DNA of 64,000 bases from Novosphingobium barchaimii LL02. GTDB lineage: Bacteria; Pseudomonadota; Alphaproteobacteria; Sphingomonadales; Sphingomonadaceae. The stretch covers positions 62,001 to 126,000 of the forward strand of contig NZ_KQ130460.1 of NCBI RefSeq assembly GCF_001046635.1. The letters run 5' to 3'. The notes beneath the pieces are model-generated. The model searched no databases, was not told the origin of the DNA, and saw only the letters and a list, made by a program, of their open reading frames with translations. How positions within the stretch are numbered: the stretch's first letter is position 1; the number at the start of each line of letters is the position of its first letter. This document shows, one piece after another, positions 11,002 to 64,000 of this stretch. The position numbers and the translations under genes were made by a program.

Positions 11002-11011
11002 TGGAGCTGCC

Positions 11012-12004: not shown

Positions 12005-12046
12005 CTCGCAGCTTGGGAGAACGGCCTAAGCGCAAGGCGCTGTTGG

Positions 12047-18347: not shown

Positions 18348-18511
18348 GACGTTCCTCCAAATAGGATCTTATACGTATTGAAGAGGTATTCGGTAGATGA
18401 CTAAGCACTTCGCCAATTAAGCGTTGCAGGCGTCCTAGGTACAATGCCGATGCACCTCGACGTTGGGAACAGAAGTTCACTCCGTTTGTGAGCGAGTTTG
18501 GGGGTTTTCAG

Positions 18512-20846: not shown

Positions 20847-20943
20847 CGCCGGCGCATTTCAGTCAGGTATGACGGAGCGCACAAGAAATCGCGGGCAGAA
20901 AAATCGATGCTGGCCTTCCATTCGTTGCAATGCCGGCAACCGA

Positions 20944-44526: not shown

Positions 44527-45165
44527 ATGACGCAAGGATGCGGAGCCATTTCCAGGCGCGACGTTCTCAAGACAAGCGCGGCCGGTGCCGCCATCGCAGG
44601 ATCCCTTGGGACCGGCAGCGTCGCCATGGCGCAGGCGGAGCCTAACGCGCCGCCTACCGCCGCCGTGCGTATGAAGGTCAACGGCAAGCAGACTTCGCTG
44701 ACGCTGGACACGCGCACCACGTTGCTGGATGCCCTGCGCGAGCATCTGAAGCTGACCGGCACCAAGAAGGGTTGCGATCATGGCCAGTGCGGGGCCTGCA
44801 CCGTCATCGTCAACGGCCGACGCATCAATTCGTGCCTGACGCTGGCAGTGATGCACGAAGGCGACGAGGTGACCACGATCGAGGGCCTCGGCACCGTCGG
44901 CGACCTGCACCCGATGCAAGCCGCTTTCGTCGAGCATGACGGTTTCCAGTGCGGCTACTGCACGCCGGGCCAGATCTGCTCGGCCGTCGCGGTGCTGGAG
45001 GAAATCCGTGCGGGCATCCCTAGCCACGTCACCGAAGATATCGGCGCGGCGCCCGGCATGACCACGCTTGAAATGCGCGAACGGATGAGCGGCAATATCT
45101 GTCGCTGCGGTGCCTATTCGAACATCGCCGAAGCCATGGCCCAGGTCGCAGGGGTGAAAGCATGA
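44527..45165 (+). CDS. paoA: Periplasmic aldehyde oxidoreductase, [2Fe-2S] subunit (PaoA-like)
   Basis: A 212-residue iron-sulfur subunit of a molybdenum enzyme, exported folded by the Tat system. The signal has the twin-arginine motif SRRDVLK (residues 10-16) followed by a helix ending at AMAQ. The mature part has the plant-type cluster [17 protein letters not shown] and a second cluster domain with QCGYCTPGQ and [15 protein letters not shown]. The length and Tat signal match E. coli PaoA (YagT). The subunit passes electrons between the FAD subunit and molybdenum site. The ATG at 44527 is preceded by AAAGGAA, and its stop overlaps the start of the FAD subunit (ATGA). The set probably detoxifies aromatic or aliphatic aldehydes. 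Confidence 0.92.
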
Positions 45166-46112
45166 GGCCCTTTACTTACGAGCGCGCCACCAGCGCGCAG
45201 GACGCCGCCGCCAAGGCCGCAGCCATGCCCGGCGCCCGTTTCATCGCCGGCGGCACCAATCTGCTCGACCTGATGAAACTGGAGATTGAAACTCCGGGCC
45301 ATCTGATCGACGTCAACGGTCTGGGCATGGACCAGATCGTGGAGACGCCGGAGGGCGGCCTGCGCATAGGCGCGCTGGTGCGAAACACCGATCTTGCCGC
45401 CGACAAGCGTGTCCGCAAGGATTACGGTGTGCTCACCCGGGCATTGGTCGCGGGTGCCTCCGGTCAGCTGCGCAACAAGGCGACGACGGCGGGCAACCTG
45501 CTGCAACGCACGCGCTGCCCTTATTTCTATGACGTCAACATGCCTTGTAACAAGCGCAAGCCCGGTTCGGGCTGCGGGGCGATCGGCGGCTTTTCCCGCC
45601 AGCTTGGCGTCATCGGCACCAGCGAGGCCTGCATCGCCACGCATCCCAGCGACATGGCGGTGGCGATGCGCGTGCTGGATGCCAGCGTCGAGACGATGCG
45701 GCCCGACGGCACCACCCGCGCCATCCCCATCGCCGAGTTTCACAAGCTGCCCGGCCAGACCCCGCAGACAGAGACCGCGCTGGAGCAGGGCGAACTGATC
45801 ATCTCGGTCGCCTTGCCAAAACCGACCGGCGGCACCCACATCTACCGCAAGGTGCGCGACCGTGCGTCCTATGCCTTCGCGCTGGTATCGGTGGCGGCGG
45901 TGATCGGCCGGGACGGGAAGGGCGCCGTCGCGCTGGGCGGTGTCGCGCCGAAACCGTGGCGGGTCCAAGAAGCCGACGCGCTGCTGCCAAAGGGCGCGCA
46001 GGCCGTCTCCGACCGCCTCTTTGCCGAGGCGACCCCGCGGGAAGACAACGCCTTCAAGATCATGCTGGCGAAGCGTACCATCGCTTCCGTCATCGCTGAG
46101 GCCAAGGGCTAA
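45162..46112 (+). CDS. paoB: Periplasmic aldehyde oxidoreductase, FAD and [4Fe-4S] subunit (PaoB-like)
   Basis: A 316-residue FAD-binding subunit. The FAD domain opens with [19 protein letters not shown] and [19 protein letters not shown], the standard molybdopterin dehydrogenase FAD block. An insertion with Cys119, Cys129, Cys138 and Cys157 (around [15 protein letters not shown] and GSGCGA) matches the extra [4Fe-4S] cluster of the PaoB type, absent from ordinary xanthine dehydrogenase FAD subunits. It has no signal of its own; the complex is probably exported together by the Tat signal on PaoA. The start overlaps paoA and the stop is 12 bases before paoC. Confidence 0.9.
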
Positions 46113-46124
46113 GGAACCGGACGC

Positions 46125-48393: not shown

Positions 48394-49302
48394 ATGCCGT
48401 TCAGGCGCGCCGACCTTGCCGACCTCAGTTACTTCCTCGCCATTGCCCGGCACCGCAATTTTCGCAAGGCAGCCACCGAACTGGGGGTAAGCGCTTCGGC
48501 GCTCAGCCATTCGCTGCGCGGGTTGGAAGAGCGGCTGAAGGTGCGGCTGGTGAACCGCACCAACCGCTCGGTCACGCTGACGGCGGCGGGTGAGGATCTG
48601 GAGCAGTCGATCCGCGATCCCTTCGCCGCGATCCACGACGCCGAGGACCGGCTCAACTTCCACCGCAATGCGCCGACCGGCCGCGTGCGTATCAACGTGC
48701 CGGACGATGCGGCGACTCAGCTTCTGGCGCCGATCCTGCCCGAATTCGTCGCGCGCTATCCCGACGTCGAACTCGACATCTGCGTCGACAACGCGATGAT
48801 CGACGTGACGCAGGAGGGCTTCGATGCCGGTATCCGTTTCGGCGGCACCGTGCCTGAGGACATGATTGCCCAGCGCCTCTCGGCCGATTTCAACTGGGTC
48901 ATCGCCGGCTCGCCCGCCTACTTCGAAAGCAGGGACGAGCCGCAGCACCCCGAGGACCTGATGCACCATCAATGCATTCGCATCCGCCTGGGCAATGCCC
49001 GCATGTACAAGTGGGAGTTCGAACGCGGCGACGAGGCCTTCGAACTCGATGTGCCTGGCGGCGTGACCGTCAACAACGGCGGCGCCAGCCGCGCGATGGC
49101 CCTGCGCGGGCTGGGCCTGATCTACATTGCGGAGGAGGGCATAGCCGACCTCGTAGCGTTGGGGCGCCTGCGCGTGGTGCTGGCGGATTGGGCCTCGCCG
49201 GGGCCGGGGTATTTCATCTACTATTCGAGTCGCAGACAGGTGCCTCGCGGCTTGCGGCTGCTGGTCGATCTCATCCGCGAATTGAGGCCACTGGGACTGT
49301 AG
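48394..49302 (+). CDS. LysR-family transcriptional regulator
   Basis: A 302-residue LysR protein. The N-terminal winged helix has LADLSYFLAIARHRNFRKAA and TELGVSASALSHSLRGLEER, then LVNRTNRSVTLTAAGE. The effector domain follows, with the LysR-type cleft regions around VPDDAATQLLAPILPEFVAR and the Gly-rich GVTVNNGGASRAMALRGLGL near residues 225-250. It is in the paoABC orientation, after the terminator, and may control that operon or another target, which the sequence does not show. The ATG at 48394 fits the family start. The next gene, fumC, starts 121 bases after its stop. Confidence 0.9.
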   Translation: MPFRRADLADLSYFLAIARHRNFRKAATELGVSASALSHSLRGLEERLKVRLVNRTNRSVTLTAAGEDLEQSIRDPFAAIHDAEDRLNFHRNAPTGRVRINVPDDAATQLLAPILPEFVARYPDVELDICVDNAMIDVTQEGFDAGIRFGGTVPEDMIAQRLSADFNWVIAGSPAYFESRDEPQHPEDLMHHQCIRIRLGNARMYKWEFERGDEAFELDVPGGVTVNNGGASRAMALRGLGLIYIAEEGIADLVALGRLRVVLADWASPGPGYFIYYSSRRQVPRGLRLLVDLIRELRPLGL

Positions 49303-50951: not shown

Positions 50952-51128
50952 ATGGCCGAAACCCCCGCTGCGCCCACACGTGCCGCAGTCGCCCTGAGCG
51001 CTGCGGATATTGCCGCTGCCGCCGCCGCGCGCGGCCTGCCGATCCTGCCTGAGTGCGAGGCAGGCGTAGCTGCAAATCTTGCGTTGTTGGCGCGCCATGC
51101 CCGCACGATGAGGGGCCAGGCGGCATGA
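50952..51128 (+). CDS. hpxX: HpxX/AtzG-like small subunit (DUF4089)
   Basis: A 58-residue helical protein too short for many gene callers. Its core GLPILPECEAGVAANLALLA and RHA match DUF4089, the small partner of AtzE-type amidases. In Klebsiella it is HpxX, encoded with the amidase HpxY. It probably stabilises or activates that amidase. I chose ATG 50952; a GTG at 50889 would add 21 non-conserved residues. Its stop TGA overlaps the amidase ATG (ATGA), so the two are translated together. This is the first gene of the purine operon. Confidence 0.78.
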   Translation: MAETPAAPTRAAVALSAADIAAAAAARGLPILPECEAGVAANLALLARHARTMRGQAA

Positions 51129-52504
51129 TGCCCATCCGAGAAATCGCCGCTGCCGTGCGCGAAGGGCGGTTAAGTGCCCGCGTTATCGTCGAGCAGGCCC
51201 TTGCCGCGCTGGTGGAGGCGGACCGCACGCTGATCGCCGTGACCCGCATTCTTCACGACCGCGCCCGCGCCGAGGCGGATGCGGTAGACGCGATGGTCGC
51301 CGCCGGGGGAGATCTTGGACCGCTCGCGGGGGTGCCTTACGGCGTGAAGGATCTGTTCGACCTGGCCGGACTGCCCACCACTGCCGGGTCCACGCTCTAC
51401 GCAGACGCCGCGCCTGCCGCCGCCGATGCCGAGGCCGTCGTGCGCCTCAAGGCCGCTGGCGCGATCGTGGTGGCGACGCTGAACATGGACGAATTTGCCT
51501 ACGGCTTCGCGACTATCAATGCCGCTTACGGCACCACCCGCAATCCCCACGATCCCGCCCGCCTTGCCGGTGGTTCCTCAGGCGGATCGGCGGCGGTGGT
51601 CGCCGCGGGGCTACTGCCTTTCTCGCTCGGGTCCGATACCAACGGTTCGGTGCGCGTGCCCGCCAGCCTGACCGGCATCTACGGCCTCAAGCCCACCAAC
51701 GGCGACCTGCCGCTGGGCGGCGTATTCCCGTTTGCCAAGAGTTTCGACGATGTCGGCCCCTTCGCCCGTTCGGTGGAGGACATGGCGCTGGTCTGGAACG
51801 TGCTGACCGGCCGAAGTGCCGGAACGCCGGACCGCGCGATGCGGGTCGCCCGCCTCGGCGGCCGCTTCCGGGACAACGCCGACCCCGATCAGCTTGCCGT
51901 CATCGATGCCATCGCGCCCGATGCTCCGCTGATCGAACTCCCTGAAATCGCCCGTGCGCGCTCGGCCGCGTTCCTCATCACCGCTTACGAGGGCGGAGCG
52001 CTCCACCGCGAGGCGCTGGCCGAAGACGCCATGGCCTTCGACCCGCAGGTGCGCGACCGGCTTCTTGCGGGCGCATTGCTGCCCGATGCTCTCTATGCAG
52101 AGGCCCAGGCCTTCCGCACCGCCTACCGAGCCCGGATCGAAGCACTGGTTGCGGATTATGACGTGCTGCTGGCTCCCGCGACGCCCACCACCGCGCCGCT
52201 GGTGGAAGACCCGCGCATCCTGATCGACGGCGCGCTCAGCCCGGCGCGCGCGGATCTTGGCATTCATACCCAGCCGATCAGCTTCACCGGATTGCCGTCG
52301 CTGGCGGTTCCGCTCTACCGTCCGGGCAAGTTGCCCATCGGCCTCCAGCTGATCGGCGGGCCGGGGCGCGAGGTGGACCTTTTTGCCTTCGCCGCCGGAC
52401 TGGAGGAGCGGGGCGTTACAGGTTTCAGCGCCCCGCCGATGGACATACAAGGCGTCGTCATTCCCGCGCAGGCATCAGCAGGGTCCGCGTGTTCGCGGGG
52501 ATGA
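51125..52504 (+). CDS. hpxY: AtzE/HpxY-type amidase (probable oxalurate hydrolysis)
   Basis: A 459-residue amidase-signature enzyme. The catalytic Lys lies in GVPYGVKDLFDLAG (near residue 78), the cis-Ser and nucleophile Ser in LAGGSSGGSAAVVAAG, and the family block LGSDTNGSVRVPASLTGIYG follows. In Klebsiella the HpxX/HpxY pair is thought to process oxalurate on the way to oxamate; that assignment is inferred from the cluster, not from residues. The start is the first of two ATGs, at 51125, overlapping hpxX. The last 20 or so residues are encoded by a palindromic repeat (52456-52506), so the natural C-terminus may have been altered or extended by it. Confidence 0.85.
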   Translation: MMPIREIAAAVREGRLSARVIVEQALAALVEADRTLIAVTRILHDRARAEADAVDAMVAAGGDLGPLAGVPYGVKDLFDLAGLPTTAGSTLYADAAPAAADAEAVVRLKAAGAIVVATLNMDEFAYGFATINAAYGTTRNPHDPARLAGGSSGGSAAVVAAGLLPFSLGSDTNGSVRVPASLTGIYGLKPTNGDLPLGGVFPFAKSFDDVGPFARSVEDMALVWNVLTGRSAGTPDRAMRVARLGGRFRDNADPDQLAVIDAIAPDAPLIELPEIARARSAAFLITAYEGGALHREALAEDAMAFDPQVRDRLLAGALLPDALYAEAQAFRTAYRARIEALVADYDVLLAPATPTTAPLVEDPRILIDGALSPARADLGIHTQPISFTGLPSLAVPLYRPGKLPIGLQLIGGPGREVDLFAFAAGLEERGVTGFSAPPMDIQGVVIPAQASAGSACSRG

Positions 52505-52624: not shown

Positions 52625-53992
52625 GTGACGCAGACACAGACCATGATGGATACCCCCAAGGCCGCGCCTTCGGGCAAGCTGGACCGCTATTTTTCGCTCA
52701 CTGCGCGCGGCACCAATGCGCGTACCGAGGTACTGGCGGGGATGACCACCTTCCTGACCATGGCCTACATCGTGCTGGTCAACCCGGCGATCCTGGGCAG
52801 CGCCGGGATGCCGGTCGCTTCAGTGGCGGCGGCGACCTGTTTCGCGGCGGCCTTCGCCTCGATCCTGATGGGCTTCGTCGCCAATGTGCCGCTGGCGCTG
52901 GCGCCGGGCATGGGCCTGAATGCCTACTTCAGCTTCACCGTCGTCCAGCAGATGGGCGTGCCCTGGCCGGTGGCGCTGGGCTGCGTGTTTCTTTCGGGCA
53001 TCGCCTTCCTGGTGCTGACCCTGACCGGCGTGCGCCAACTCATCGTCTCGGCCATTCCGCAGTACCTCTTCGCAGCGGTGGCGGGTGGTATCGGCCTGTT
53101 CATCGGCTTTATCGGCCTCAAAGGCGCGGGCATCGTGGTCGCCAATCCGGCGACGTTCGTGGCGCTGGGGGACCTGAAAAGTCCCGGCGCGGCTCTGGCG
53201 CTGTTCGGCCTCGTCGTGATCGGCGCGCTGAGCGTGTGGAACGTGCGCGGGGCGATGCTGGTCGGCATCGTCGCCACGACGCTGGTCGGCTGGCTGGCGG
53301 GCATGGTCACCGTCAGCCCGGAACCCTATTCGCTAGCCGCGCTGACGGGAACGGCCTTCCAGCTGGATCTGGGCGGCGTGTTCGGCCTTTCCGGTAAGCA
53401 GGGGCTGGGCCTTCTTGAAATCCTCTTCGTGTTCCTTTTCGTCGACCTGTTCGACAATATCGGAACCCTCGTCGCAGTGACCAAGCGGGCCGGGTTGATG
53501 GACGCCCAGGGCCGCATCCCGCGCCTCAACCGCATCCTCATCACCGATGCCGCCGCCACCATCGTCGGTTCGATGGCGGGCACTAGCACCGTGACCTCCT
53601 ATGTGGAGAGCGCGGCGGGCGTGCAGGCGGGCGGGCGCACCGGCCTTACCGCTATCGTCACCGGGCTGCTGTTTCTGGCGACGATGTTCGTCGCGCCTTA
53701 TGCGCAGGTGATCCCGCTGGCGGCGACCGCGCCCGCGCTCATCATCGTCGGCGGACTGATGCTGCTGCCGCTGACCGAAGTGGAATGGGAGGACCCGCTT
53801 TCGGCGATCCCGGCGTTCCTGACCGTGGCGATGATCCCGCTGACGTTCTCGATCGCCAATGGCCTGGCCTTCGGCATCACCGCCCATGCCATCCTCAAGA
53901 TCGTGCGCGGCACGATCCGCAAGAGCGACGGTTTCCTGCTGGTTCTGGCTTTGCTGTTCGTCGCCCGCTTCGTCTGGATGGGAGCCGCCTGA
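52625..53992 (+). CDS. NCS2-family purine permease (AzgA/PbuG-type)
   Basis: A 455-residue inner-membrane transporter with about twelve to fourteen helices. The opening LDRYFSLTARGTNARTEVLA and GMTTFLTMAYIVLVNPAIL are the AzgA-branch hallmark, with the substrate-site regions ALAPGMGLNAYFSF and GTSTVTSYVESAAGVQAGGR. AzgA-type proteins carry adenine, guanine or hypoxanthine with protons. The start is GTG 52625. It overlaps the next gene by one base (TGATG), a nucleosidase that would release the bases it imports. The 120-base gap before it contains part of a palindrome and could hold an internal promoter, but none is clear. Confidence 0.87.
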   Translation: MTQTQTMMDTPKAAPSGKLDRYFSLTARGTNARTEVLAGMTTFLTMAYIVLVNPAILGSAGMPVASVAAATCFAAAFASILMGFVANVPLALAPGMGLNAYFSFTVVQQMGVPWPVALGCVFLSGIAFLVLTLTGVRQLIVSAIPQYLFAAVAGGIGLFIGFIGLKGAGIVVANPATFVALGDLKSPGAALALFGLVVIGALSVWNVRGAMLVGIVATTLVGWLAGMVTVSPEPYSLAALTGTAFQLDLGGVFGLSGKQGLGLLEILFVFLFVDLFDNIGTLVAVTKRAGLMDAQGRIPRLNRILITDAAATIVGSMAGTSTVTSYVESAAGVQAGGRTGLTAIVTGLLFLATMFVAPYAQVIPLAATAPALIIVGGLMLLPLTEVEWEDPLSAIPAFLTVAMIPLTFSIANGLAFGITAHAILKIVRGTIRKSDGFLLVLALLFVARFVWMGAA

Positions 53993-54942
53993 TGCTGAAA
54001 TACGCCCTGACCGCTTCTTGCACCCTGGCCGCAGCCTGCACCCTGGCTGCCGCTCCGGCGCTGGCCGACGAAAGGCTGGACATCACGCCGCGCACCTTGG
54101 TGATGACCGCTTATCAGCCCGAATGGAACGCGCTGGTGCATGCCGTGACGGCGCCTAAGGAATACCGGATCAACGGCATGACTTACCTGACCGGGACGCT
54201 GGAGGGTAAGCCGATCCTGCTGATGCAGAGCGGCGTGTCGATGGTGAACGCGGCGATGAACACGCAGCTTGTGATCGACAGGTTCACCGTCAAGCGCATC
54301 GTCTTTTCCGGCATCGCCGGCGGGGTCGACCCCGGCCTTTCCATCGGCGACGTGATCGTGCTGGAGGACTGGGGCCAGTACCTGGAAGTCAACTTTGCGC
54401 GAAAGGCGGGCAAGAAGGGTTGGAAATCGCCCGAGGCGGTGGCTCCCGAGGCGCCGGGCAACTGGAACTTCATCTTCCCGCGCGGAGTGACCGTCGCCAA
54501 TGCCGCCGCGCCGCCGCAGCGCATCTTCAAGTTCCCGATGGACGCAGGCCTGCTGGACCTTGCCCGCAAGGTCGCGCCCACTGTGGACATGGAACGCTGC
54601 GTGCCGCCATCGCCCACGCAGCTTCCCGACACCGAACTGTGCCTGAAGAAGGCGCCCAAGGTCGTCGTCGGCGGCACCGGCGTCAGCGCGGGCGTCTATG
54701 CGGACAACGCCGAATTCCGCGAATACCTCTTCAAGGCCTGGCACGCCCGCGTGCTCGACATGGAGAGCGGCGCGGTGGCGCAGGTCGCCTATGCCAACCA
54801 GGTGCCGACGATTGTGTTCCGCTCGCTTTCCGACCTTGCCGGCGGTGACAGGCACAAGAACATGGAAGACACCTACGAGCATCTTGCCGCTGTGAATTCC
54901 GCCCATGTGGTGCGCGCATTCGTCGCCGCGCTTCCCGATTAA
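53992..54942 (+). CDS. Exported purine nucleosidase (phosphorylase superfamily)
   Basis: A 316-residue protein with a signal peptide (ALTASCTLAAACTLAAAPAL, cleaved before ADE), so it acts in the periplasm. It is a phosphorylase-superfamily protein of the nucleosidase/purine nucleoside permease (NUP) type: the core has IVFSGIAGGVDPGLSIGDVI and ARVLDMESGAVAQVAYANQV, the ribose/base-binding block, with GGTGVSAGVYADN between. It should split purine nucleosides in the periplasm, so that the base can enter through the adjacent AzgA-type permease. Phosphorolysis versus hydrolysis cannot be told, though the periplasm favours hydrolysis. It starts at ATG 53992, overlapping the permease stop, and is 10 bases before hpxW. 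Confidence 0.83.
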   Translation: MLKYALTASCTLAAACTLAAAPALADERLDITPRTLVMTAYQPEWNALVHAVTAPKEYRINGMTYLTGTLEGKPILLMQSGVSMVNAAMNTQLVIDRFTVKRIVFSGIAGGVDPGLSIGDVIVLEDWGQYLEVNFARKAGKKGWKSPEAVAPEAPGNWNFIFPRGVTVANAAAPPQRIFKFPMDAGLLDLARKVAPTVDMERCVPPSPTQLPDTELCLKKAPKVVVGGTGVSAGVYADNAEFREYLFKAWHARVLDMESGAVAQVAYANQVPTIVFRSLSDLAGGDRHKNMEDTYEHLAAVNSAHVVRAFVAALPD

Positions 54943-54952
54943 GGCCGCCGGA

Positions 54953-56530
54953 ATGAAAACCGTAACCGCCGAACACGGTATCGTCACCGCGCCGCACTAC
55001 CTTGCGGCGCAGGCCGGGCGCGATGTGCTGGCCGATGGCGGCAATGCCGTCGAAGCCTGCGTAGCGGTGGCGGCGACGCTGGCTGTCGTCTATCCGCATA
55101 TGACCGGGATCGGCGGCGACGGATTCTGGCTGATCCGCGAGCCGGACAGGCGCGTCCATTCGGTCCATGGCTGCGGCGGGTCGGCCGCCAAGGCGGACCT
55201 TTCGCTCTACGCGGGGCTTGCCGCAGTGCCGACGCGGGGGCCCTTGGCGGCGAATACGGTTGCGGGCACCATCTCGGGCTGGGCAGCTGCGCTTGCGGGG
55301 GACGGCTGCACTTTGCCGCTGGACCGTCTGCTGCGCGATGCGATCCATCATGCCGAACTGGGCGTGTCGGTGACGGCGGGCGGTGCGGGCATAGCGGCGG
55401 CCAAGGGCGGCGAACTGCGCGGCCAGCCTGGCGCCTATGCGCAGGTGTTCGAGCCTGAGGGCAAGCCGCTTACCGAAGGCGACGTGCTGCTCCAGCCGCT
55501 GCTGGCGCAAACCTTTCGCAAGCTGGCGGCGAACGGCCTTGACGATTATTACCGCGGCGAACTGGCGCAGCTGATCGCGCATGACCTTGCCGCGCTGGGC
55601 AGTCCGGTGTCGCTGGCGGACCTCAATGCCCATGCCGCCAGCCGCCCTGATCCGCTGCATACCGCCATCACCGGCGCGGCGCTCTACAATGCAACCCCGC
55701 CGACGCAGGGCTTTGCCGCGCTGATGATCCTGGCGCTGTTCGACCGTCTCAAAGCCGATGCGCCGGACAGTTTCGATCATGTCCACGGCCTGATCGAGGC
55801 GACCAAGCAGGCGTTCCTGCTGCGCGACGTCCATGTCGGTGATCCGGCCTATACCGACTTCGATTTTCAGGCCTTGCTGTCCGACTTGGCCGCGCTGGAC
55901 GAGCTGGCTTCTCGCATCGATCCGGCAAAAGCGCTTCCCTGGCCGCAGCCTCCGCAGTGGGGTGATACCTGCTGGTTCGGCGCGGCGGACAGCGAGGGCA
56001 GGGTGGTGTCCTGCATCCAGTCCACCTACTTCGAGTTCGGCTCCGGGCTGGTCCTGCCGCAGACCGGTATCACCTGGCAGAACCGGGGCAGTTCGTTCCG
56101 CCTTTCGGAAGGTGGTTGGAATGCGCTGAAGCCGGGCCGCAAGCCTTTCCACACGCTCAATCCGGCGCTGGCCGTGTTCGAGGATGGCCGCATCATGGCC
56201 TATGGCACCATGGGCGGAGAGGGGCAGCCGCAGACGCAGGCCGCCCTGTTCAGCCGCTACGCCCGCTTCGGGGTGGACCTGCAGGAGGCCATCAGCGCCC
56301 CGCGCTGGCTGCTGGGCCGCACCTGGGGGGAACAATCGACCACGCTCAAGCTGGAGGACGGCTTCGACGAGGGGCTTTATGCGGCCCTTGCCGAGGCTGG
56401 CCACGACGTCGAGCGCGTGGGTCCGCTGACGGCGACGATGGGCCATGCGGGCGCCTTGGTGCGCCTTGCGGGCGGCGGATTCGAAGGCGCTACCGATCCG
56501 CGCAGCGACGGGGGCGTGCTGGGATGGTGA
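54953..56530 (+). CDS. hpxW: Gamma-glutamyltransferase-family amidohydrolase (HpxW-type, oxamate)
   Basis: A 525-residue Ntn-hydrolase of the gamma-glutamyltransferase family. It should mature by self-cleavage before Thr339 (GDT|CWFGAADSEG), which becomes the nucleophile. The N-terminal half has GGNAVEACVAVAATLAVVYP and MTGIGGDGFWLI, and the C-terminal half PFHTLNPALAVFEDGR and GTMGGEGQPQTQ. HpxW of Klebsiella is an oxamate amidohydrolase in uric acid degradation, giving oxalate and ammonia. The absence of a signal peptide supports a cytoplasmic catabolic role rather than periplasmic glutathione turnover. The start is ATG 54953, 10 bases after the nucleosidase. A large inverted repeat follows before hpxK. 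Confidence 0.82.
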   Translation: MKTVTAEHGIVTAPHYLAAQAGRDVLADGGNAVEACVAVAATLAVVYPHMTGIGGDGFWLIREPDRRVHSVHGCGGSAAKADLSLYAGLAAVPTRGPLAANTVAGTISGWAAALAGDGCTLPLDRLLRDAIHHAELGVSVTAGGAGIAAAKGGELRGQPGAYAQVFEPEGKPLTEGDVLLQPLLAQTFRKLAANGLDDYYRGELAQLIAHDLAALGSPVSLADLNAHAASRPDPLHTAITGAALYNATPPTQGFAALMILALFDRLKADAPDSFDHVHGLIEATKQAFLLRDVHVGDPAYTDFDFQALLSDLAALDELASRIDPAKALPWPQPPQWGDTCWFGAADSEGRVVSCIQSTYFEFGSGLVLPQTGITWQNRGSSFRLSEGGWNALKPGRKPFHTLNPALAVFEDGRIMAYGTMGGEGQPQTQAALFSRYARFGVDLQEAISAPRWLLGRTWGEQSTTLKLEDGFDEGLYAALAEAGHDVERVGPLTATMGHAGALVRLAGGGFEGATDPRSDGGVLGW

Positions 56531-56690: not shown

Positions 56691-57938
56691 ATGATCGCAG
56701 CAAACCTCCCCCCCGGCGGCGCACGCGCCGTTTCACGCTGCGATGCGCTTGGCGCCGCGCCTTATTCCGACATGGAAGGCGGGCTGTTTCGTGGCTATCT
56801 GACGCCCGCCTACGCCGCCTCTCAGGTGGCATTGGCCGCGTGGATGGAAGCAGCCGGTATGACCGTGCGCCGGGATGCCGCCGCCAACCTCATCGGCCGC
56901 TATGACGGCCGCCTTGCCGATGCGCCGGCGCTCGTGATCGGCAGTCATCTCGATTCGGTCCGCGATGCCGGTTTCTATGACGGTCCGCTTGGCGTGATGC
57001 TGGGGATCGAGGCGGTCGCTGCGCTGCATGAGCAGGGCAGAAGAATGCCGTTCCCGATCGAGGTCTATGCTTTCGGGGATGAGGAAGGTTCGCGCTTTCC
57101 CGCCGCAATGCTGACCACGCGCGCGGTTGCCGGAACGCTGGACGCTGCCGCGCTGGACGTAGCCGACGCCGAGGGCATAACCCTCGCGCAGGCGCTGCCC
57201 GGTTCGGCGGAGTATCTCGACGCCCGCCGCGAACCTGCCGCCACGCTGGCCTACCTCGAAGCACATATCGAGCAAGGGCCGGTGCTGGAGGCGGACGGCC
57301 TCGCAGTCGGCACCGTCACCGGCATCGCCGCGCAGCTGCGTTACGCCGTCACCGTCAAGGGTATGGCGGGCCACGCCGGCACGACCGCGATGCGCCTGCG
57401 CCGCGATCCTCTGGCCGGGGCCGCCGCCATGATCCTCGCCGTCGAGCAGCTTGCGCGGGGGGACAATTCAGATGTCGTGGCCACGGTCGGCACGATCGAG
57501 GCGCTGCCCGGCGCGGCCAATGTCATTCCGGGGGAAGTCCGCTTCACCATCGACGTGCGCTCAGGCTCGGAAACCCGGCGCAACGGCATGGCTGAGGCGA
57601 TCCTTGCCCGCCTGCGCGAGATTGCCGAAGCGCGCGCGCTGGACCTTGGCACGGTGCTGGTCCACGATCTTGCCGCCAGCCCCTGTGCACCCGCGCTGAT
57701 GGACCTGATGGACGAGGCGCTCGTCGCTGCCGGGCAGCCGGTGCGCCGGCTCGTCTCGGGCGCCGGGCATGATGCAATGGTCATGGCTTCGCTGTGCCCT
57801 ACCGCCATGCTGTTCATCCGTTGCACCGGCGGCGTGAGCCACAACCCTGCCGAACATGTCGAGCCTGCCGATGTCGAAATCGCGCTTCAGGTCATGCTCG
57901 GTTTCATAGATCGCCTTGGAGATTCATTTGCCGCCTGA
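56691..57938 (+). CDS. hpxK: Allantoate amidohydrolase (M20 family)
   Basis: A 415-residue metal-dependent hydrolase that cleaves allantoate to ureidoglycine, carbon dioxide and ammonia. Metal ligands are visible in the usual order: His in GSHLDSV, Asp in GFYDGPLGVM, two Glu in AFGDEEGSRF, His in EAHIEQGP, and the final His in TGGVSHNPAEH. KGMAGHAGTTAMRLRRDPL marks the dimerisation domain. HpxK of Klebsiella is the matching protein. I chose ATG 56691, where the protein-like sequence begins; the frame is open to 56445, but that part crosses the repeat. Its stop overlaps the hpxJ start. It works with hpxJ to divert the product to oxalurate. Confidence 0.87.
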   Translation: MIAANLPPGGARAVSRCDALGAAPYSDMEGGLFRGYLTPAYAASQVALAAWMEAAGMTVRRDAAANLIGRYDGRLADAPALVIGSHLDSVRDAGFYDGPLGVMLGIEAVAALHEQGRRMPFPIEVYAFGDEEGSRFPAAMLTTRAVAGTLDAAALDVADAEGITLAQALPGSAEYLDARREPAATLAYLEAHIEQGPVLEADGLAVGTVTGIAAQLRYAVTVKGMAGHAGTTAMRLRRDPLAGAAAMILAVEQLARGDNSDVVATVGTIEALPGAANVIPGEVRFTIDVRSGSETRRNGMAEAILARLREIAEARALDLGTVLVHDLAASPCAPALMDLMDEALVAAGQPVRRLVSGAGHDAMVMASLCPTAMLFIRCTGGVSHNPAEHVEPADVEIALQVMLGFIDRLGDSFAA

Positions 57939-59184
57939 ACTGGACCCCCTCGCACTCGGCCAGATGCTGTTTGGCGAGATCGACCCGCCGCAGCGCCTGC
58001 TGATGGGCCCTGGCCCGATCAACGCCCACCCGCGCGTGCTGCGCGCGATGAGCGCGGACCTGCTGGGTCAGTTCGATCCCGAGATGACCGGGTTCATGAA
58101 CCAGGTCATGGCGCTTTACCGCCCGATCTTCGGCACTCAGAACAAGTGGACGATGCTGGTCGACGGCACTGCCCGCGCCGGGATCGAGGCGGCGCTGGTC
58201 AGCCTCGTTTCGCCCGGCGACGTTGTGCTGGTGGTGAACTTCGGCCGCTTCGGCCTGCTCCTGACCGAAATTCTCCAGCGCATCGGCGCGGTGATCGAGA
58301 CGGTCGAGGCGCCGTGGGGCGAGGTGGTCCCGCTGGAACGGATCGAGGCGGCCATCGCCCGCGCCCACCCCAAGGTCGTCGCCACCATTCACGGCGATAC
58401 CTCGACCACCATGGCACAGCCGCTGGAAGGCTTCGGCGCATTGTGCCGGGCGGCGGGCGCGCTTTCCTACGTCGATGCGACCGCGACCATCGGCGGCATG
58501 GAACTGGCCGCAGACCGCTGGGACGTGGACGTGGTGACGGGCGGCTTGCAAAAGTGCCTCGGCGGGCCTTCCGGCTCGGCGCCGATCACCATTTCGGACC
58601 GGGCGGCCGAGCATATCGGCAAGCGCCGTCACGTCGAGCAAGGCATCCGGGGCGCCGATACCATCGACGGGCAGGGGCCGCGCATCCGCTCCAACTATTT
58701 CGACCTCGCCATGATCATGGATTACTGGTCGGACAAGCGCCTCAACCACCACACCGAGGCGACCTCGATGCTCTACGCCGCGCGCGAATGCGCCCGCATC
58801 GTGCTGGGCGAGGGGCTTGAGGCCCGGTATGCCCGCCATGCCTCGGCGGGCCGCGCGATGACGGCGGGCCTGCGGGCGATGGGCCTCACCGTGTTTGGCG
58901 ACGACCGTTACCGCATGACCAATGTGACCGGCGTCTACACCCCCGACGGCGTCGATGGCGAGGCGGTGCGGATGGCCATGCGCGAACTGTTCGAGATCGA
59001 GATCGGCACCGCTTTCGGCCCGCTTCAGGGCAAGGTCTGGCGGCTTGGCGCGATGGGTTACAACGCGATGAAGCACAAAGTGCTGCTGACGCTGGCGGCG
59101 CTGGAATCGTGCCTGCGCATGGAAGGCTTCGCGCTTCCCCTGGGCGAGGCGGTTCCGGCGGCGATGCAGGCCTGGGACGCATGA
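57916..59184 (+). CDS. hpxJ: Ureidoglycine aminotransferase (PucG/HpxJ-like)
   Basis: A 422-residue class V PLP enzyme of the alanine-glyoxylate aminotransferase type. The opening RLLMGPGPINAHPRVLRAMS is the family signature, and the PLP lysine is Lys213 in TGGLQKCLGGPSGS. FDPEMTGFMNQVM and DGTARAGIEAAL follow the usual order. HpxJ/PucG transfers the amino group of ureidoglycine to a 2-oxo acid, yielding oxalurate. The start is TTG 57916, overlapping the hpxK stop, or another TTG at 57928. The exact start is uncertain. The stop overlaps the puuE ATG (ATGA). Placing it next to hpxK avoids spontaneous decay of ureidoglycine. Confidence 0.87.
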   Translation: MEIHLPPELDPLALGQMLFGEIDPPQRLLMGPGPINAHPRVLRAMSADLLGQFDPEMTGFMNQVMALYRPIFGTQNKWTMLVDGTARAGIEAALVSLVSPGDVVLVVNFGRFGLLLTEILQRIGAVIETVEAPWGEVVPLERIEAAIARAHPKVVATIHGDTSTTMAQPLEGFGALCRAAGALSYVDATATIGGMELAADRWDVDVVTGGLQKCLGGPSGSAPITISDRAAEHIGKRRHVEQGIRGADTIDGQGPRIRSNYFDLAMIMDYWSDKRLNHHTEATSMLYAARECARIVLGEGLEARYARHASAGRAMTAGLRAMGLTVFGDDRYRMTNVTGVYTPDGVDGEAVRMAMRELFEIEIGTAFGPLQGKVWRLGAMGYNAMKHKVLLTLAALESCLRMEGFALPLGEAVPAAMQAWDA

Positions 59185-60074
59185 GCGTGACCCGCGACCT
59201 TATTGGCTATGGCCAGAACCCGCCTGACGCGCAGTGGCCGGGCGGTGCACGCGTGGCCGTGCAGTTCGTCATCAACTATGAGGAAGGCGCGGAAAACTCC
59301 GTCCTCAATGGCGACAAGGGTTCGGAGGCTTTCCTGTCCGAGATGGTCGGCGCGGGCAGCCACCCGGACCGGGCGATGGCAATGGAGAGCCTCTACGAAT
59401 ACGGCAGCCGCGCCGGCTTCTGGCGCCTCCACCGCCTGTTCACCGAGCGCGGCCTTCCCGTGACCGTCTTCGGCGTGGCAAAGGCCATGGAGATGAACCC
59501 TGAAGCCGTCGCAGAGATGCTGGCCGCCGATTGGGAAATCGCCAGCCACGGCCTGCGCTGGATCGACTATCAGTACGTGGCCGAGCATGTGGAACGCGCT
59601 CATATCGCCGAAGCCATCACCCTGCACAAAAAGCTCACCGGCCAGCGCCCGCTCGGCTGGTATCAGGGCCGGACCTCGCCCAACACCGCGCGGCTGGTGG
59701 CCGAGGAGGGCGGTTTCGCCTATGACGCCGACAGCTACGCCGACGACTTGCCTTATTGGGACACGCGATTTGGGAAACCGCAGTTGATCGTGCCCTACAC
59801 GCTCGACGTGAACGACATGAAGATGGTCGCGCTCAACGGCTTCACCGAGGGCGAGCAGTTCTTTCGCCACATGCGCGATACGTTCGATCAATTGCGCGAG
59901 GAGGGCGGGCGGATGATGTCCATCGGCCTGCACGCCCGGATTGCCGGAAAGCCCGGACGTGCCCGCTGGCTGGCGCGTTTCCTCGACCATGTGATCGCCA
60001 GCGGCGATGCGTGGACGGCGCGCCGCATCGACATTGCCCGTCACTGGCAGGAAGTGCACCCTTATGCAGATTAA
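59181..60074 (+). CDS. puuE: Allantoinase PuuE (polysaccharide deacetylase fold)
   Basis: A 297-residue metal-independent allantoinase that opens the ring of allantoin to allantoate. The N-terminus DLIGYGQNPPDAQWPGGARV and FVINYEEGAENSVLNGD are the PuuE signature. The deacetylase-like core has YEYGSRAGFWRLHRLFTERG and IASHGLRWIDYQYV. The length is the family standard. It differs from the metal-dependent allantoinase AllB. ATG 59181 overlaps the hpxJ stop, and the stop overlaps the next gene by 11 bases. Confidence 0.92.
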   Translation: MSVTRDLIGYGQNPPDAQWPGGARVAVQFVINYEEGAENSVLNGDKGSEAFLSEMVGAGSHPDRAMAMESLYEYGSRAGFWRLHRLFTERGLPVTVFGVAKAMEMNPEAVAEMLAADWEIASHGLRWIDYQYVAEHVERAHIAEAITLHKKLTGQRPLGWYQGRTSPNTARLVAEEGGFAYDADSYADDLPYWDTRFGKPQLIVPYTLDVNDMKMVALNGFTEGEQFFRHMRDTFDQLREEGGRMMSIGLHARIAGKPGRARWLARFLDHVIASGDAWTARRIDIARHWQEVHPYAD

Positions 60075-60444
60075 TGATCCGGTACTGCTCGCCGAAGTGA
60101 CCCACGCTTTCCATTCCTACGAACTGGCGCTGATGGCGGATGACGTGGCCGCGATGGACGCACTGTTCCACAATGCACCCACCACCAACCGCTACGGCGT
60201 GGGCGAAGTGCTCTATGGCATCGAGGAAATCCGCGAATTTCGCAAAGGGCGCGGCGGCTCTCCCCAGCGTAGGATCGGGCGCCTGGCGATCACCGTTTAC
60301 GGCGACAGCTTCGCCACCGCCGATGCCGAATTCTTCCGCGAAGGTTCTGACCGGCGTGGCCGTCAGACGCAATCCTGGGTGAAGTTCGCGAGCGGCTGGA
60401 AGGTCGTCTCCGCCCATGTCAGCCTTGAGGGGACAACCTCATGA
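60064..60444 (+). CDS. hpxZ: HpxZ-like DUF3225 protein (AtzH-type, NTF2-like fold)
   Basis: A 126-residue protein of the DUF3225/AtzH family with an NTF2-like fold. The block FHSYELALMADDVAAMDALF and HNAPTTNRYGVGE, then IEEIREFRKGRG, match the family, and AEFFREG and QTQSWVKF form the second half of the cone. In Klebsiella hpxZ is encoded with hpxX, hpxY and hpxW, but its activity is not established; an accessory role with the amidase is plausible. Here it is displaced from hpxX and hpxY by seven genes. ATG 60064 overlaps the puuE stop, and the stop overlaps the uraD start (ATGA). Confidence 0.82.
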   Translation: MQINDPVLLAEVTHAFHSYELALMADDVAAMDALFHNAPTTNRYGVGEVLYGIEEIREFRKGRGGSPQRRIGRLAITVYGDSFATADAEFFREGSDRRGRQTQSWVKFASGWKVVSAHVSLEGTTS

Positions 60445-60881
60445 CCGCCCTGTTCGAGCACAGCCCCTGGGTTGAGGAACGCGCCGATGCGCGGCCCTCA
60501 AGCGGGGACCGTCATGCAGACCTGATGACCGTGATGTATGCGGCCAGCGCAGAGGAGCAGCTCGCACTGATCCGCGCTCACCCCGAACTCGCTGGCAAGG
60601 CTGCGATCGACAAGACCCTGACCGATGCAAGCAGTGCCGAACAGGCCAGCGCCGGGCTGGACCGGCTGACGCCGCAGGAATTCGACCAGTTCCATGTCCT
60701 GAACGGAGCTTACCGCGACAAGTTCGGCTTTCCCTTCATCATCTGCGTGCGCCTGACCGACAAGGCGGGTATTCTCAGCGCCATGGAACGCCGCCTCGGG
60801 AACGCGCGCGAGGCGGAAATCGAGACTGCGCTCGGACAGATCGGCGAGATAGTGCGCTTGCGGCTGGAAGATGCGAAATGA
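60441..60881 (+). CDS. uraD: OHCU decarboxylase, short N-terminus
   Basis: A 146-residue enzyme that decarboxylates 2-oxo-4-hydroxy-4-carboxy-5-ureidoimidazoline to S-allantoin. LFEHSPWVEERADARP and ALIRAHPELAGKAA carry the conserved His residues, and DQFHVLNGAYRDKFGFPFII is the signature of the family. Typical members are about 160-175 residues with an N-terminal helix before FEHSPW; this one starts only four residues before that block. An in-frame TGA at 60426-60428 shows that no longer in-frame start is available. Loss of the first helix may be natural. The start overlaps hpxZ and the stop overlaps the flavoprotein start, both as ATGA. Confidence 0.85.
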   Translation: MTALFEHSPWVEERADARPSSGDRHADLMTVMYAASAEEQLALIRAHPELAGKAAIDKTLTDASSAEQASAGLDRLTPQEFDQFHVLNGAYRDKFGFPFIICVRLTDKAGILSAMERRLGNAREAEIETALGQIGEIVRLRLEDAK

Positions 60882-62302
60882 ACGAAAGTATTGGCCTCCC
60901 CACTCTCGAGGCGCAGCTTGCCCGCGATCTTGATCTCATCGGTTTCTATCGCCCTGAATGGGTGCGCCCGCGCGCACTGGACGGCGAGGATGTCCTTGAT
61001 GTCGCAGTGATCGGCGGCGGCCAGTGCGGTCTTTCCGCCGCGCTGGGCCTTCGCCGCGAAGGCGTGACCAGCGTCATGGTCTTCGACGAGAACGTGCCCG
61101 GCTACGAAGGTCCGTGGGACACCTATGCGCGGATGGTCACACTGCGCACGCCCAAGCACCTCAATCCCATCGACTTCGGCGTGCCTTCGCTGACCTACCG
61201 GGCCTGGTGGGAAGCGCAGCACGGCGCTGCGGGCTGGGAGGCGGTAGACAAGATCGCGCGCGGCGACTGGATGGCATATCTGCGCTGGTATCGCCGCGTG
61301 CTGCACCTTCCGGTCGAGAACGGCGCGAAGCTGACTCGCATCGAACCGCTACCGGACAAGAACCTGCATCGCCTGCATTTCGATGGCGGCGCGGCGCGGC
61401 TGGCCCGCAAGGTCGTGCTGGCGACAGGCATCCAGGGCGGCGGCGAATGGCACACCCCGGCGATGGTGCGCGATAATCTGCCCAAGTCGCTGTGGGCGCA
61501 TACCAGCGAACCGATCGACTTCGCACGGCTGCATGGCAAGCGCATCGGCATCCTTGGCGGCGGGGCCTCGGCATTCGACAACGCCAATTACGCGCTGACC
61601 CAGGGCGTGGGGGCGGCGGAAGTATTCATGCGCCGCAAGGAACTGCCGCGCATAAACCCGATCCGCTTCATGGAACGCGTCGGCTTCACCGCCCGCTACC
61701 CGGCGCTGGACGATGCCACAAAGTATGCGGCGATGGACTGCTTCCTTGGCCACAACCAGCCGCCCACGAACGACACGTTCGCCCGCGCCGCCGCATGGCC
61801 GGGCTTCGCGCTGCATCTGGGCGCCCCGTGGCTGGATGTGGCCGAGCATGAGGGCGGCGTGCGCGTGACCAGTCCGCATGGCTTCCACGATTACGACTTC
61901 GTCGTCGTCTCCACCGGTCTGCTGAGCGATCCCGGCCTGCGCCCCGAACTGTCCCATGTCGCCGATCTCATCGTCCGGTGGGGCGACCGGGTGACGCCTG
62001 ACGGCAAGCGCAACGCCCTGATCGACGCGCATCCCTATCTTGGCGCGGCGTTCGAATTCCTGCCTCGCGATGGCGTGGACGGCGCGGCCCTGTACGGTCT
62101 GTTCGCCTTCAACTATTCCGCGCTGGTTAGCCTTGGCCTTTCCGCCTCGGCGCTATCGGGCCTGCACAATGCGCTGCCGCGCCTCGTCAAGGGCGTGGCC
62201 GACCAGCTTTTCCTCGATGACCGCGATGAACTGGTGGCCGATTTCCTCGATTACGACGAGCATGAGTTTCTGGAACAATGGCCGAAGGAGACAGCGGTAT
62301 GA
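60878..62302 (+). CDS. FAD/NAD(P)-binding oxidoreductase, FMO-like; candidate urate hydroxylase
   Basis: A 474-residue flavoprotein with two dinucleotide-binding motifs. The first, GGGQCG (residues 46-51), should bind FAD and the second, GGGASA (227-232), NAD(P)H; LATGIQGGGEWHT (181-193) lies between, as in flavin-containing monooxygenases. The FMO fingerprint FxGxxxHxxxW is not evident, so it is a divergent relative. It sits between uraD and uraH, with ATGA overlaps on both sides. All other urate-to-allantoin genes are in the operon, yet no Uox, HpxO or PuuD gene is seen. It could perform urate oxidation; another oxidation in the pathway is also possible. This function is inference. Confidence 0.72.
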   Translation: MNESIGLPTLEAQLARDLDLIGFYRPEWVRPRALDGEDVLDVAVIGGGQCGLSAALGLRREGVTSVMVFDENVPGYEGPWDTYARMVTLRTPKHLNPIDFGVPSLTYRAWWEAQHGAAGWEAVDKIARGDWMAYLRWYRRVLHLPVENGAKLTRIEPLPDKNLHRLHFDGGAARLARKVVLATGIQGGGEWHTPAMVRDNLPKSLWAHTSEPIDFARLHGKRIGILGGGASAFDNANYALTQGVGAAEVFMRRKELPRINPIRFMERVGFTARYPALDDATKYAAMDCFLGHNQPPTNDTFARAAAWPGFALHLGAPWLDVAEHEGGVRVTSPHGFHDYDFVVVSTGLLSDPGLRPELSHVADLIVRWGDRVTPDGKRNALIDAHPYLGAAFEFLPRDGVDGAALYGLFAFNYSALVSLGLSASALSGLHNALPRLVKGVADQLFLDDRDELVADFLDYDEHEFLEQWPKETAV

Positions 62303-62631
62303 GCACCTTGTCCACCCACGTCCTCGATACCGCCCATGGCAGCCCTGCCGCAGGCATTGCGCTGGTCCTCGAAACTGAAAGCGGCACCGTGCTGTTCGAA
62401 GGGACGACCAATGATGACGGCCGCTGTCCGGGCGTGCCGGAGCTTCCTACCGGCACCTATCGCCTGAAGTTCTCGGTCGCTGCCTATTTCCGGCGGCGCG
62501 GCGTGCATCTGCCCGAGCCGCCGTTCCTTGACCGCGTGGCGATAGACTTCGGCATTGCCGACCCCGCCGGGCATTATCATGTACCGTTGCTGGTCTCGCC
62601 CTTCGGCTATTCGACCTACCGGGGCAGCTGA
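62299..62631 (+). CDS. uraH: 5-Hydroxyisourate hydrolase (transthyretin-like)
   Basis: A 110-residue enzyme that hydrolyses 5-hydroxyisourate to OHCU. It shows STHVLDTAHGSPAAGI with the catalytic His near the start, the Arg-containing YRLKFSVAAYF region, HYHVPLLVSPFGYSTYRGS at the end, and the C-terminal YRGS signature of the family. It has no signal peptide, so it is cytoplasmic. The length is typical. ATG 62299 is preceded by GAAGGAG and overlaps the flavoprotein stop. Its stop shares a base with the xdhA start. Confidence 0.93.
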   Translation: MSTLSTHVLDTAHGSPAAGIALVLETESGTVLFEGTTNDDGRCPGVPELPTGTYRLKFSVAAYFRRRGVHLPEPPFLDRVAIDFGIADPAGHYHVPLLVSPFGYSTYRGS

Positions 62632-64000
62632 TGGGGGCAGTACGTTTCCTTCTCGATGGCGAAGTGGTGGACCTGCCCGAGGTTGACCCTACTGCGACGC
62701 TGCTTGATCATCTGCGGTACAAGATGCGCCGCACCGGCACCAAGGAAGGCTGCGCGGAAGGTGACTGCGGTGCCTGCACCGTGCTGGTAGGCTCTCTTGG
62801 CCCGGCCGGCGATACGGTGGACTGGCGCGCGGTCAATTCGTGCATCCAGTTCCTGCCCATGGTGAACGGCAAGGCGCTGATGACGGTTGAAAGCCTCAAG
62901 GCCGAAGACGGCGCGATCTGCCCGTTGCAGCAAACGATGGCGGCGAACGGAAGCTCGCAGTGCGGGTTCTGCACTCCGGGTTTCGTGATGTCGCTGCATG
63001 GCCGCAGCATCGGCGCGAAGGGCTGCGAGCTGCCGGTGGCGGACGTGATCGCGGGCAACCTCTGCCGCTGCACCGGCTACGGCCCGATCCTCGAAGCGGG
63101 CGAGAATGCGCTGCCGCAGGATCGCAGCGATGCCGATCTGGCCAAGAGCCTCATGGCGCTGACGGGCGAGGGGACCTCGGGAGAATGGCAGGGACGCCGC
63201 TGGTTCGTCCCGCGCTCATCCGATGAACTGGCCGCGCTGCTGGCCGAGCATCCGGATGCCCGTCTGATCGCTGGCGCAACCGATGTCGGCTTGTGGGTGA
63301 CCAAGGGGCTGCGCGAACTGGGCACTGTGATCTTCCTCGGCGACATGGCCGACCTTGCGCAGATCGAGGAAACTGACGAGGCGCTGATCCTCGGCGCGGG
63401 CGTGCGCTACGGCGATGCCCACGCAGCCATGGCACGCCTCCACCCGGACCTTGGCGAACTGGTACGCCGTATCGGCGGCCTTCAGGTCCGCAATGCCGGA
63501 ACCGTGGGCGGCAACATCGCCAATGGTTCGCCGATCGGTGACGGTCCGCCCGCTTTGATCGCGCTGGGAGCACGGCTGACGCTGCGCAGCGTGGACGGTC
63601 GTCGCACGATGCCGCTGGAGGACTACTTCCTAGCTTACGGCAAGCAAGACCGCCGTGCGGGAGAGTTCGTGGAATCCGTGCATATCCCGCGCCCCGGCGC
63701 CGATGCGGTGATCCATATCGCCAAGCTCTCGCGCCGCTTCGACAGTGATATCTCGGCGGTTTGCGGCGCCTTCATGCTAAGCGTGACCGATGGCGCGATC
63801 ACCTCGGCCCGCGTCGCCTTCGGCGGGATGGCGGCAACCCCCAAGCGCGCGGCCGCGTGCGAGGCGGCTCTCACCGGCAAACCCTTCGACGATGCCACTG
63901 TCACTGCCGCCATCGCTGCGCTCAAGACTGACTTCGAACCTTTGAGCGACGTGCGCGGTTCATCGACTTACCGTGTGGAAACTGCCGCGAACCTGCTGCG
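62631..64000 (+). CDS. xdhA: Xanthine dehydrogenase small subunit, partial at the window end
   Basis: The first 456 residues of a subunit that carries two [2Fe-2S] clusters and FAD and oxidises hypoxanthine and xanthine to urate with the large subunit. The N-terminal cluster has KEGCAEGDCGACTVLVG, the second cluster QCGFCTPGF and NLCRCTGYGP, and the FAD domain begins near residue 190 with LIAGATDVGLWVTKGLRELG and RNAGTVGGNIANGSPIGDGP. The usual length is about 480-490, so only the C-terminal end is missing. The FAD domain is fused to the iron-sulfur part, which differs from PaoA/PaoB. It overlaps the uraH stop by one base. The large subunit, xdhB, is expected just beyond the edge. Confidence 0.93.
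   Translation, partial: MGAVRFLLDGEVVDLPEVDPTATLLDHLRYKMRRTGTKEGCAEGDCGACTVLVGSLGPAGDTVDWRAVNSCIQFLPMVNGKALMTVESLKAEDGAICPLQQTMAANGSSQCGFCTPGFVMSLHGRSIGAKGCELPVADVIAGNLCRCTGYGPILEAGENALPQDRSDADLAKSLMALTGEGTSGEWQGRRWFVPRSSDELAALLAEHPDARLIAGATDVGLWVTKGLRELGTVIFLGDMADLAQIEETDEALILGAGVRYGDAHAAMARLHPDLGELVRRIGGLQVRNAGTVGGNIANGSPIGDGPPALIALGARLTLRSVDGRRTMPLEDYFLAYGKQDRRAGEFVESVHIPRPGADAVIHIAKLSRRFDSDISAVCGAFMLSVTDGAITSARVAFGGMAATPKRAAACEAALTGKPFDDATVTAAIAALKTDFEPLSDVRGSSTYRVETAANLL

What the first reader, a model, noticed from the sequence alone, without database searches (positions are those of the whole stretch)
60878..62302. FMO-like flavoprotein in place of a urate oxidase
The operon encodes xanthine dehydrogenase, hydroxyisourate hydrolase, OHCU decarboxylase, allantoinase and all later steps, but no gene for Uox, HpxO or PuuD is in the window. 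The one unassigned gene, translationally coupled between uraD and uraH, is an FAD/NAD(P)-binding protein with two Rossmann motifs (residues 46-51 and 227-232). It lacks an obvious FMO fingerprint. It may be a non-homologous urate hydroxylase. The missing enzyme could also lie beyond the right edge.
Basis: partly seen in the sequence, partly recalled or inferred. Interest (0 to 1): 0.72.

Follow-up and report, generated by a model that had tools for sequence, protein, structure and literature searches.

The report
HpyO-type FAD urate hydroxylase
The unnamed flavoprotein gene in this bacterial purine-breakdown operon almost certainly encodes the enzyme that oxidises uric acid, and it appears to belong to a urate hydroxylase type (HpyO) already described in Xanthomonas, so it fills the gap in the pathway but is not a new kind of enzyme.

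The parts
60878..62302 (+). HpyO-type FAD/NAD(P)H urate hydroxylase (474 aa): FAD motif residues 46-51, NAD(P) motif residues 227-232
60441..60881 (+). uraD, OHCU decarboxylase (TIGR03164, 174 bits, over cut-off); stop overlaps the start of the flavoprotein gene
62299..62631 (+). uraH, 5-hydroxyisourate hydrolase (TIGR02962, 116 bits, over cut-off); start at 62299 overlaps the flavoprotein stop (the ORF can also be read from 62278)
62631..64000 (+). xdhA, xanthine dehydrogenase small subunit, runs off the right edge (TIGR02963)
60046..60444 (+). hpxZ, oxalurate catabolism protein (NF033625)
59184..60074 (+). puuE-type allantoinase (TIGR03212)
57916..59184 (+). aminotransferase, probably of the ureidoglycine-glyoxylate type by context (no NCBIfam model over cut-off)
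56694..57938 (+). allantoate amidohydrolase (NF006775)
54905..56530 (+). gamma-glutamyltransferase-like protein, below cut-off (HpxW-like by context; recalled)
52625..53992 (+). Xan_ur_permease family transporter (PF00860)
51053..52504 (+). AtzE-family amidohydrolase

Best explanation
The gene encodes the urate hydroxylase of the operon and is an ortholog of Xanthomonas HpyO. Proposed mechanism (inferred from flavin monooxygenase chemistry and the pathway, not shown here): NAD(P)H reduces the bound FAD, O2 adds to give C4a-hydroperoxyflavin, and the urate anion takes the distal oxygen at C5, giving 5-hydroxyisourate, water and NAD(P)+. UraH (next gene) hydrolyses 5-hydroxyisourate to OHCU and UraD (previous gene) decarboxylates OHCU to S-allantoin. 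Shown by computation: the gene, its coupling, its orthology group, the co-occurrence and a class B-like predicted fold. Inferred: substrate, product, cofactor use, and identity with the published HpyO protein.
For: Same order uraD-gene-uraH in sphingomonads and in four Xanthomonas loci, L073, L078, L083, L084. By script 47 of 80 loci have uraD and uraH within 1.5 kb, 38 of 40 outside Bacillota; of the two misses L084 does have both (a long ORF call hid uraH) and L037 has only uraH. Sphingomonad family: gene at 61% identity or more in 7 of 149, UraD in the same 7, at most about 55 bases away; Uox in 0 of 149; Fisher p 3.6e-12, or 1.9e-9 without two genomes I had already selected. Xanthomonas genus: gene in 31 of 35 (one copy split between frames), UraD in the same 31 and next to it (p 1.9e-5). 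In 48 genomes that hold loci: UraD 48, Uox 5, PF06181 1 (partial), HpxO over cut-off 0. A Priestia filamentosa plasmid has symporter-uraD-uraH-gene as annotated, 56% identity. Tree: the window, Xanthomonas and Bacillota proteins and others form a 45-row clade, SH-aLRT 100, on a long branch (quick method, no bootstrap). Doniselli 2015 describes HpyO as a Xanthomonas urate oxidising flavoenzyme using NAD(P)H and FAD, of a family distinct from HpxO (passages).
Against: No assay. The HpyO paper was not held and its sequence was not compared. In 31 of 40 Bacillota loci no uraD/uraH is found in the locus (four of the 31, L041, L046, L057 and L069, have under 5 kb on one or both sides). Five of 48 genomes with the gene also have Uox, all Bacillota, one of them with uraD/uraH next to the gene. 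In 104 genomes of one Bacillota family the link with UraD is weak: 5 of 5 carriers against 48 of 104 overall, p 0.019, and 0.088 without the two seed genomes. P0001 has no NCBIfam match over cut-off. Roughly 40% identical paralogs sit in ABC-transporter/LysR operons, so family membership alone does not prove function. The HpxO search had no positive control over the cut-off (0 of 14 control genomes) and scored at most 31 candidates a genome.
Confidence: 0.92

Rival explanations
1. The flavoprotein acts on another step or side product of purine breakdown, and urate is oxidised by an unrelated enzyme encoded elsewhere.
For: In 31 of 40 Bacillota loci the gene is away from uraD/uraH, and in 5 of 48 genomes it occurs together with Uox. 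42 of 48 genomes have HpxO-superfamily matches below the cut-off, so a diverged HpxO cannot be fully excluded.
Against: In the 149 and 35 genomes of two lineages UraD never occurs without the gene. None of the 149 has Uox, and the PF06181 matches there span at most about 93 of 295 positions in one stretch, in frames mostly of about 200 aa, unlike full PuuD.
Confidence: 0.05
2. A Uox, HpxO or PuuD gene lies beyond the right edge or elsewhere in this genome and does the job.
For: The window's own genome is not held and the operon runs off the right edge.
Against: The genome with the 94% identical ortholog and the same operon has no Uox or PF06181 match and no HpxO match over cut-off (G004). Its operon continues with XDH subunits and XdhC.
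Confidence: 0.02
3. It is an entirely new urate hydroxylase family, distinct from HpyO.
For: The HpyO paper and sequence could not be read; P0001 matches no NCBIfam model over cut-off.
Against: The Xanthomonas member, 58-60% identical and full length in 30 of 35 genomes, lies next to uraD; the four Xanthomonas genomes tested have no Uox or PF06181 match and no HpxO match over cut-off. HpyO was described as the FAD enzyme of Xanthomonas that is not an HpxO homolog.
Confidence: 0.03

Closest known systems
HpyO, FAD-dependent urate hydroxylase of Xanthomonas (Michiel et al. 2012, paper not held; described in Doniselli et al. 2015, PMC4562309, passages read)
   Same: Xanthomonas-genus homologs are 58-60% identical over the full length in 30 of 35 genomes and next to uraD, in the order uraD-gene-uraH in four loci; flavoprotein with FAD and NAD(P) motifs; co-occurs with UraD.
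   Different: Host lineage (sphingomonad); activity of this protein not measured; direct comparison with the published sequence not made.
HpxO, Klebsiella FAD urate hydroxylase (NF033623; class A is recalled)
   Same: Proposed reaction and place in the pathway.
   Different: Different family: the window protein has two Rossmann motifs and a class B-like predicted fold, and no NCBIfam HpxO match at E 0.001.
PvdA/KtzI/SidA N-hydroxylating monooxygenases and SMFMO-type flavin monooxygenases (class B)
   Different: 14-23% identity in those rows; operon context is purine breakdown; no canonical FMO fingerprint.
Uox and PuuD urate oxidases
   Same: Same pathway step.
   Different: Unrelated families (cofactor-free T-fold; membrane protein with cytochrome c). 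In the 20 Pseudomonadota genomes among the 48 that hold loci, Uox is in 0 and PF06181 in 1, a partial match.

Membership tests
HpyO urate hydroxylase | Orthologous to the Xanthomonas gene of the uraD/uraH cluster | tested here: met
   59% identity, same order in 4 Xanthomonas loci, one clade with SH-aLRT 100; that this Xanthomonas gene is the published HpyO is inferred
HpyO urate hydroxylase | Sequence identity to the published X. campestris HpyO protein | not tested
   Paper not held; its sequence was not obtained
HpyO urate hydroxylase | FAD- and NAD(P)H-binding flavoprotein of a family distinct from HpxO | tested here: met
   Two Rossmann motifs; Pfam NAD_binding_9, Pyr_redox_3; PF01494 only below cut-off, residues 41-68; class B-like fold. 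Binding itself was not measured
HpyO urate hydroxylase | Converts urate to 5-hydroxyisourate with NAD(P)H and O2 | not testable with these tools
   Needs an enzyme assay; supported by context and co-occurrence only
HpxO urate hydroxylase (NF033623) | Scores over the curated cut-off (500 bits) | tested here: not met
   NF033623 is not among the 11 families that P0001 matches at E 0.001
Class B flavin monooxygenase (canonical FMO/BVMO) | FMO fingerprint FxGxxxHxxx(Y/F) before the NADP motif (recalled) | tested here: not met
   Local sequence AHTSExIDF; only H208 in common, invariant in 56 of 56
Class B flavin monooxygenase (fold) | Two dinucleotide-binding domain fold | tested here: met
Uox (PF01014) / PuuD (PF06181) | Profile match | tested here: not met
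   Pfam scan of P0001 lists seven families at E 0.001, neither of these among them

The most novel reading that the evidence does not exclude
HpyO is a class B-fold (ornithine N-hydroxylase-like) flavoprotein that evolved ring-carbon hydroxylation of a purine, the reaction for which HpxO uses another fold. The function may extend past the HpyO clade: the Niveispirillum homolog (45% identity, outside the clade) also sits between uraD and uraH and shares E61, D99, W191, P261, R263, E266, N293, Q294, F301, S427 and G428 with the HpyO clade, residues absent from the seven outgroup paralogs, so these are candidates for the urate site. Under this reading the stand-alone Bacillota copies are unrecognised urate hydroxylases too.
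Probability: 0.5. Interest if true: 0.4.

Novelty: new member of a known kind. Interest (0 to 1): 0.22.

Why it matters
It closes the apparent pathway gap in sphingomonad purine operons and gives a simple annotation rule (a two-Rossmann flavoprotein between uraD and uraH is HpyO). P0001 matches no NCBIfam model over cut-off and no close solved structure was found by sequence (best profile match 45 bits), so such enzymes can go unnamed: the Priestia copy next to uraD and uraH is annotated only as NAD(P)/FAD-dependent oxidoreductase. A wider HpyO spread, including Bacillota, would change counts of urate-degrading bacteria and gives more urate oxidising enzymes that form water instead of H2O2 (as stated for HpxO/HpyO).

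Tried and rejected
A wholly new urate hydroxylase: rejected because the Xanthomonas ortholog in the same gene order fits the published HpyO. PuuD in sphingomonads: PF06181 scored over its cut-off in 45 of 149 genomes, including two of the seven gene carriers (G069, G079), but the listed matches span at most about 93 of 295 positions in one stretch, usually about 70, some with a second short piece; I did not count them as PuuD, which is a judgement. The one PF06181 match among the 48 genomes (G003, a carrier) is also partial, 92 positions in a 209-aa frame. HpxO: sub-cut-off matches in 42 of 48 genomes, best 277 bits in G047 against a cut-off of 500; no control genome rang over the cut-off and at most 31 candidates a genome were scored, so this test is weaker than those for Uox and PF06181, whose controls rang. 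Neighbours of the 31 stand-alone Bacillota copies: no cluster besides the gene itself in more than 6 loci. L091 (Rhizobium sp. ACO-34A): no uraD or uraH in its 11.4 kb. One further homolog at 35% identity in the 149 genomes (G135) is in a genome without UraD and was not counted as a carrier. That the four searches of the 149 genomes used one and the same draw is read from equal settings and shared handles. Fold searches show fold, not substrate.

Literature: searches 'HpyO' or 'urate hydroxylase' (20 of 54 papers listed), 'HpyO, Xanthomonas, urate', 'urate, flavoprotein, Xanthomonas campestris, urate oxidase', 'urate hydroxylase, purine catabolism, Novosphingobium', 'hpyO, uricase, bacteria', 'N-hydroxylating monooxygenase, class B flavoprotein monooxygenases, urate': no listed paper is, by its title or abstract start, on HpyO in sphingomonads or Bacillota; most subscription papers are not held. 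PMC4562309: 12 of 13 passages seen. PMC5270733: one passage and the reference; PMC10117892 and PMC5138847: the Michiel reference only. Michiel 2012: title and reference only; its complementation in Acinetobacter baylyi is recalled.

Full report
Observation. The gene at 60878-62302 (+) is a genuine 474-aa coding sequence with homologs of 55-94% identity over nearly the full length in all 80 loci kept by one scan of a genome collection. Its start overlaps the uraD stop, its stop overlaps the likely uraH start at 62299, and the uraH stop overlaps the xdhA start. NCBIfam confirms uraD, uraH, HpxZ, PuuE allantoinase, allantoate amidohydrolase, an AtzE-family amidase and XdhA over their cut-offs; the aminotransferase and the gamma-glutamyltransferase-like protein stay below cut-off. 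Ten operon proteins and 30 further window ORFs show no uricase, PuuD or HpxO; 6 of 42 ORFs of a mechanical set were not scanned.

Context. The order uraD-gene-uraH recurs in sphingomonads, in several MAGs and in Xanthomonas (allC-aminotransferase-puuE-hpxZ-uraD-gene-uraH in L073, L078, L083 and L084). In a Priestia filamentosa plasmid the annotated order is nucleobase symporter-uraD-uraH-gene. By script 47 of 80 loci have both partner genes within 1.5 kb: 38 of 40 non-Bacillota and 9 of 40 Bacillota loci; L084 has both as well and L037 has only uraH.

Co-occurrence. In 149 genomes of the family of the nearest relative (Novosphingobium sp. 18050, G004) a homolog of at least 61% identity is in 7 (one further at 35%), UraD is in exactly those 7 and next to the gene, and Uox in none. 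Fisher p is 3.6e-12, or 1.9e-9 without two genomes I had already picked. In 35 genomes of the genus of Xanthomonas dyei (G016) the homolog is in 31 and UraD in exactly the same 31, next to it; the four without the gene have no UraD. In 48 genomes that hold the loci (50 of 80 loci sent, 2 not held), UraD is in 48, Uox in 5 (all Bacillota), PF06181 in 1 as a partial match, HpxO over cut-off in 0. The Uox and PF06181 searches rang in control genomes; the HpxO search rang over its cut-off in none of 14, so that absence is weaker. In 104 genomes of the family of Paenibacillus rigui (G033) the signal is weak: 5 carriers, all with UraD, against 48 of 104 overall, p 0.019, or 0.088 without the seeds.

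Comparison with the known. Doniselli et al. [quoted passage not shown] The Xanthomonas member of the present family, next to uraD, in genomes without Uox or PF06181 matches and without HpxO over cut-off (four tested), fits that description. I could not read Michiel et al. 2012 or compare its sequence. On this basis the window gene is an HpyO ortholog.

Limits of the family. Homologs of roughly 40% identity sit in ABC-transporter/LysR operons in rhizobia, Pseudoroseomonas, Ketogulonicigenium and Kozakia and in other settings, and fall outside the 45-row clade. One of them is on plasmid At of Agrobacterium fabrum C58; since deletion of puuD alone abolishes urate degradation in C58 (abstract), that paralog does not supply urate oxidation there under the conditions used. 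The Niveispirillum homolog (45%), outside the clade, nevertheless lies between uraD and uraH. Residues E61, D99, W191, P261, R263, E266, N293, Q294, F301, S427 and G428 are kept by at least 95% of the clade and by Niveispirillum and absent from the seven outgroup paralogs; they are candidates for the urate site, an inference.

Bacillota. In 31 of 40 Bacillota loci no uraD or uraH lies in the locus, four of them cut short by contig ends, and no neighbour is widely shared. Of these, 19 genomes were searched: 19 have UraD elsewhere or beyond the locus, 4 have Uox. Whether these copies hydroxylate urate is open.

Mechanism. Proposed: NAD(P)H reduces FAD, O2 forms the C4a-hydroperoxyflavin, urate takes the oxygen at C5 to give 5-hydroxyisourate, which UraH and UraD convert to allantoin. 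The catalytic steps are inferred from established flavin monooxygenase chemistry and the pathway; only sequence, predicted fold, context and distribution are shown here.

Verdict. What may be new is its spread into sphingomonads and Bacillota, the predicted class B fold, and the lack of an NCBIfam model that names it.

Noticed in passing
Bacillota loci among L036-L086 (31 of 40 Bacillota loci): Close HpyO-like genes stand alone, without uraD/uraH in the locus; 19 of these genomes were searched, all 19 have UraD and 4 also have Uox.
   Followed up: partly
G321 (Xanthomonas genus), contig C1 about 87057-88461: The homolog is spread over more than one reading frame next to uraD, so the copy is broken or the assembly has errors.
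   Followed up: no
G024 (genome of L058, Anaerobacillus alkalilacustris), contig C27 about 127967-128430: The uraD match is split in two pieces, one with an internal stop, suggesting a decaying or misassembled gene.
   Followed up: no
149 genomes of the sphingomonad family, PF06181: 45 of 149 score over the Pfam cut-off for the PuuD domain, but with partial matches in frames mostly near 200 aa; the cut-off may over-call PuuD here.
   Followed up: no
L091, Rhizobium sp. ACO-34A plasmid, 4968-6419: A related flavoprotein outside the HpyO clade lies with an AraC-type regulator, a flavin reductase, a PuuE-like deacetylase and a gene annotated 8-oxoguanine deaminase: possibly a different purine pathway.
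   Followed up: partly
L006, Mesorhizobium loti NZP2037 plasmid, 8001-9467: Another homolog outside the clade is followed by genes for an XDH-family molybdo-flavoenzyme.
   Followed up: no
window 44527-48320: PaoABC-like molybdo-flavoenzyme genes followed by a LysR regulator at 48394-49302, upstream of the purine operon.
   Followed up: no
window about 1800-20850: Exopolysaccharide-type cluster: acyltransferase, GH16 protein with RTX repeats, O-antigen ligase, glycosyltransferases, Wzz-like chain length protein.
   Followed up: no
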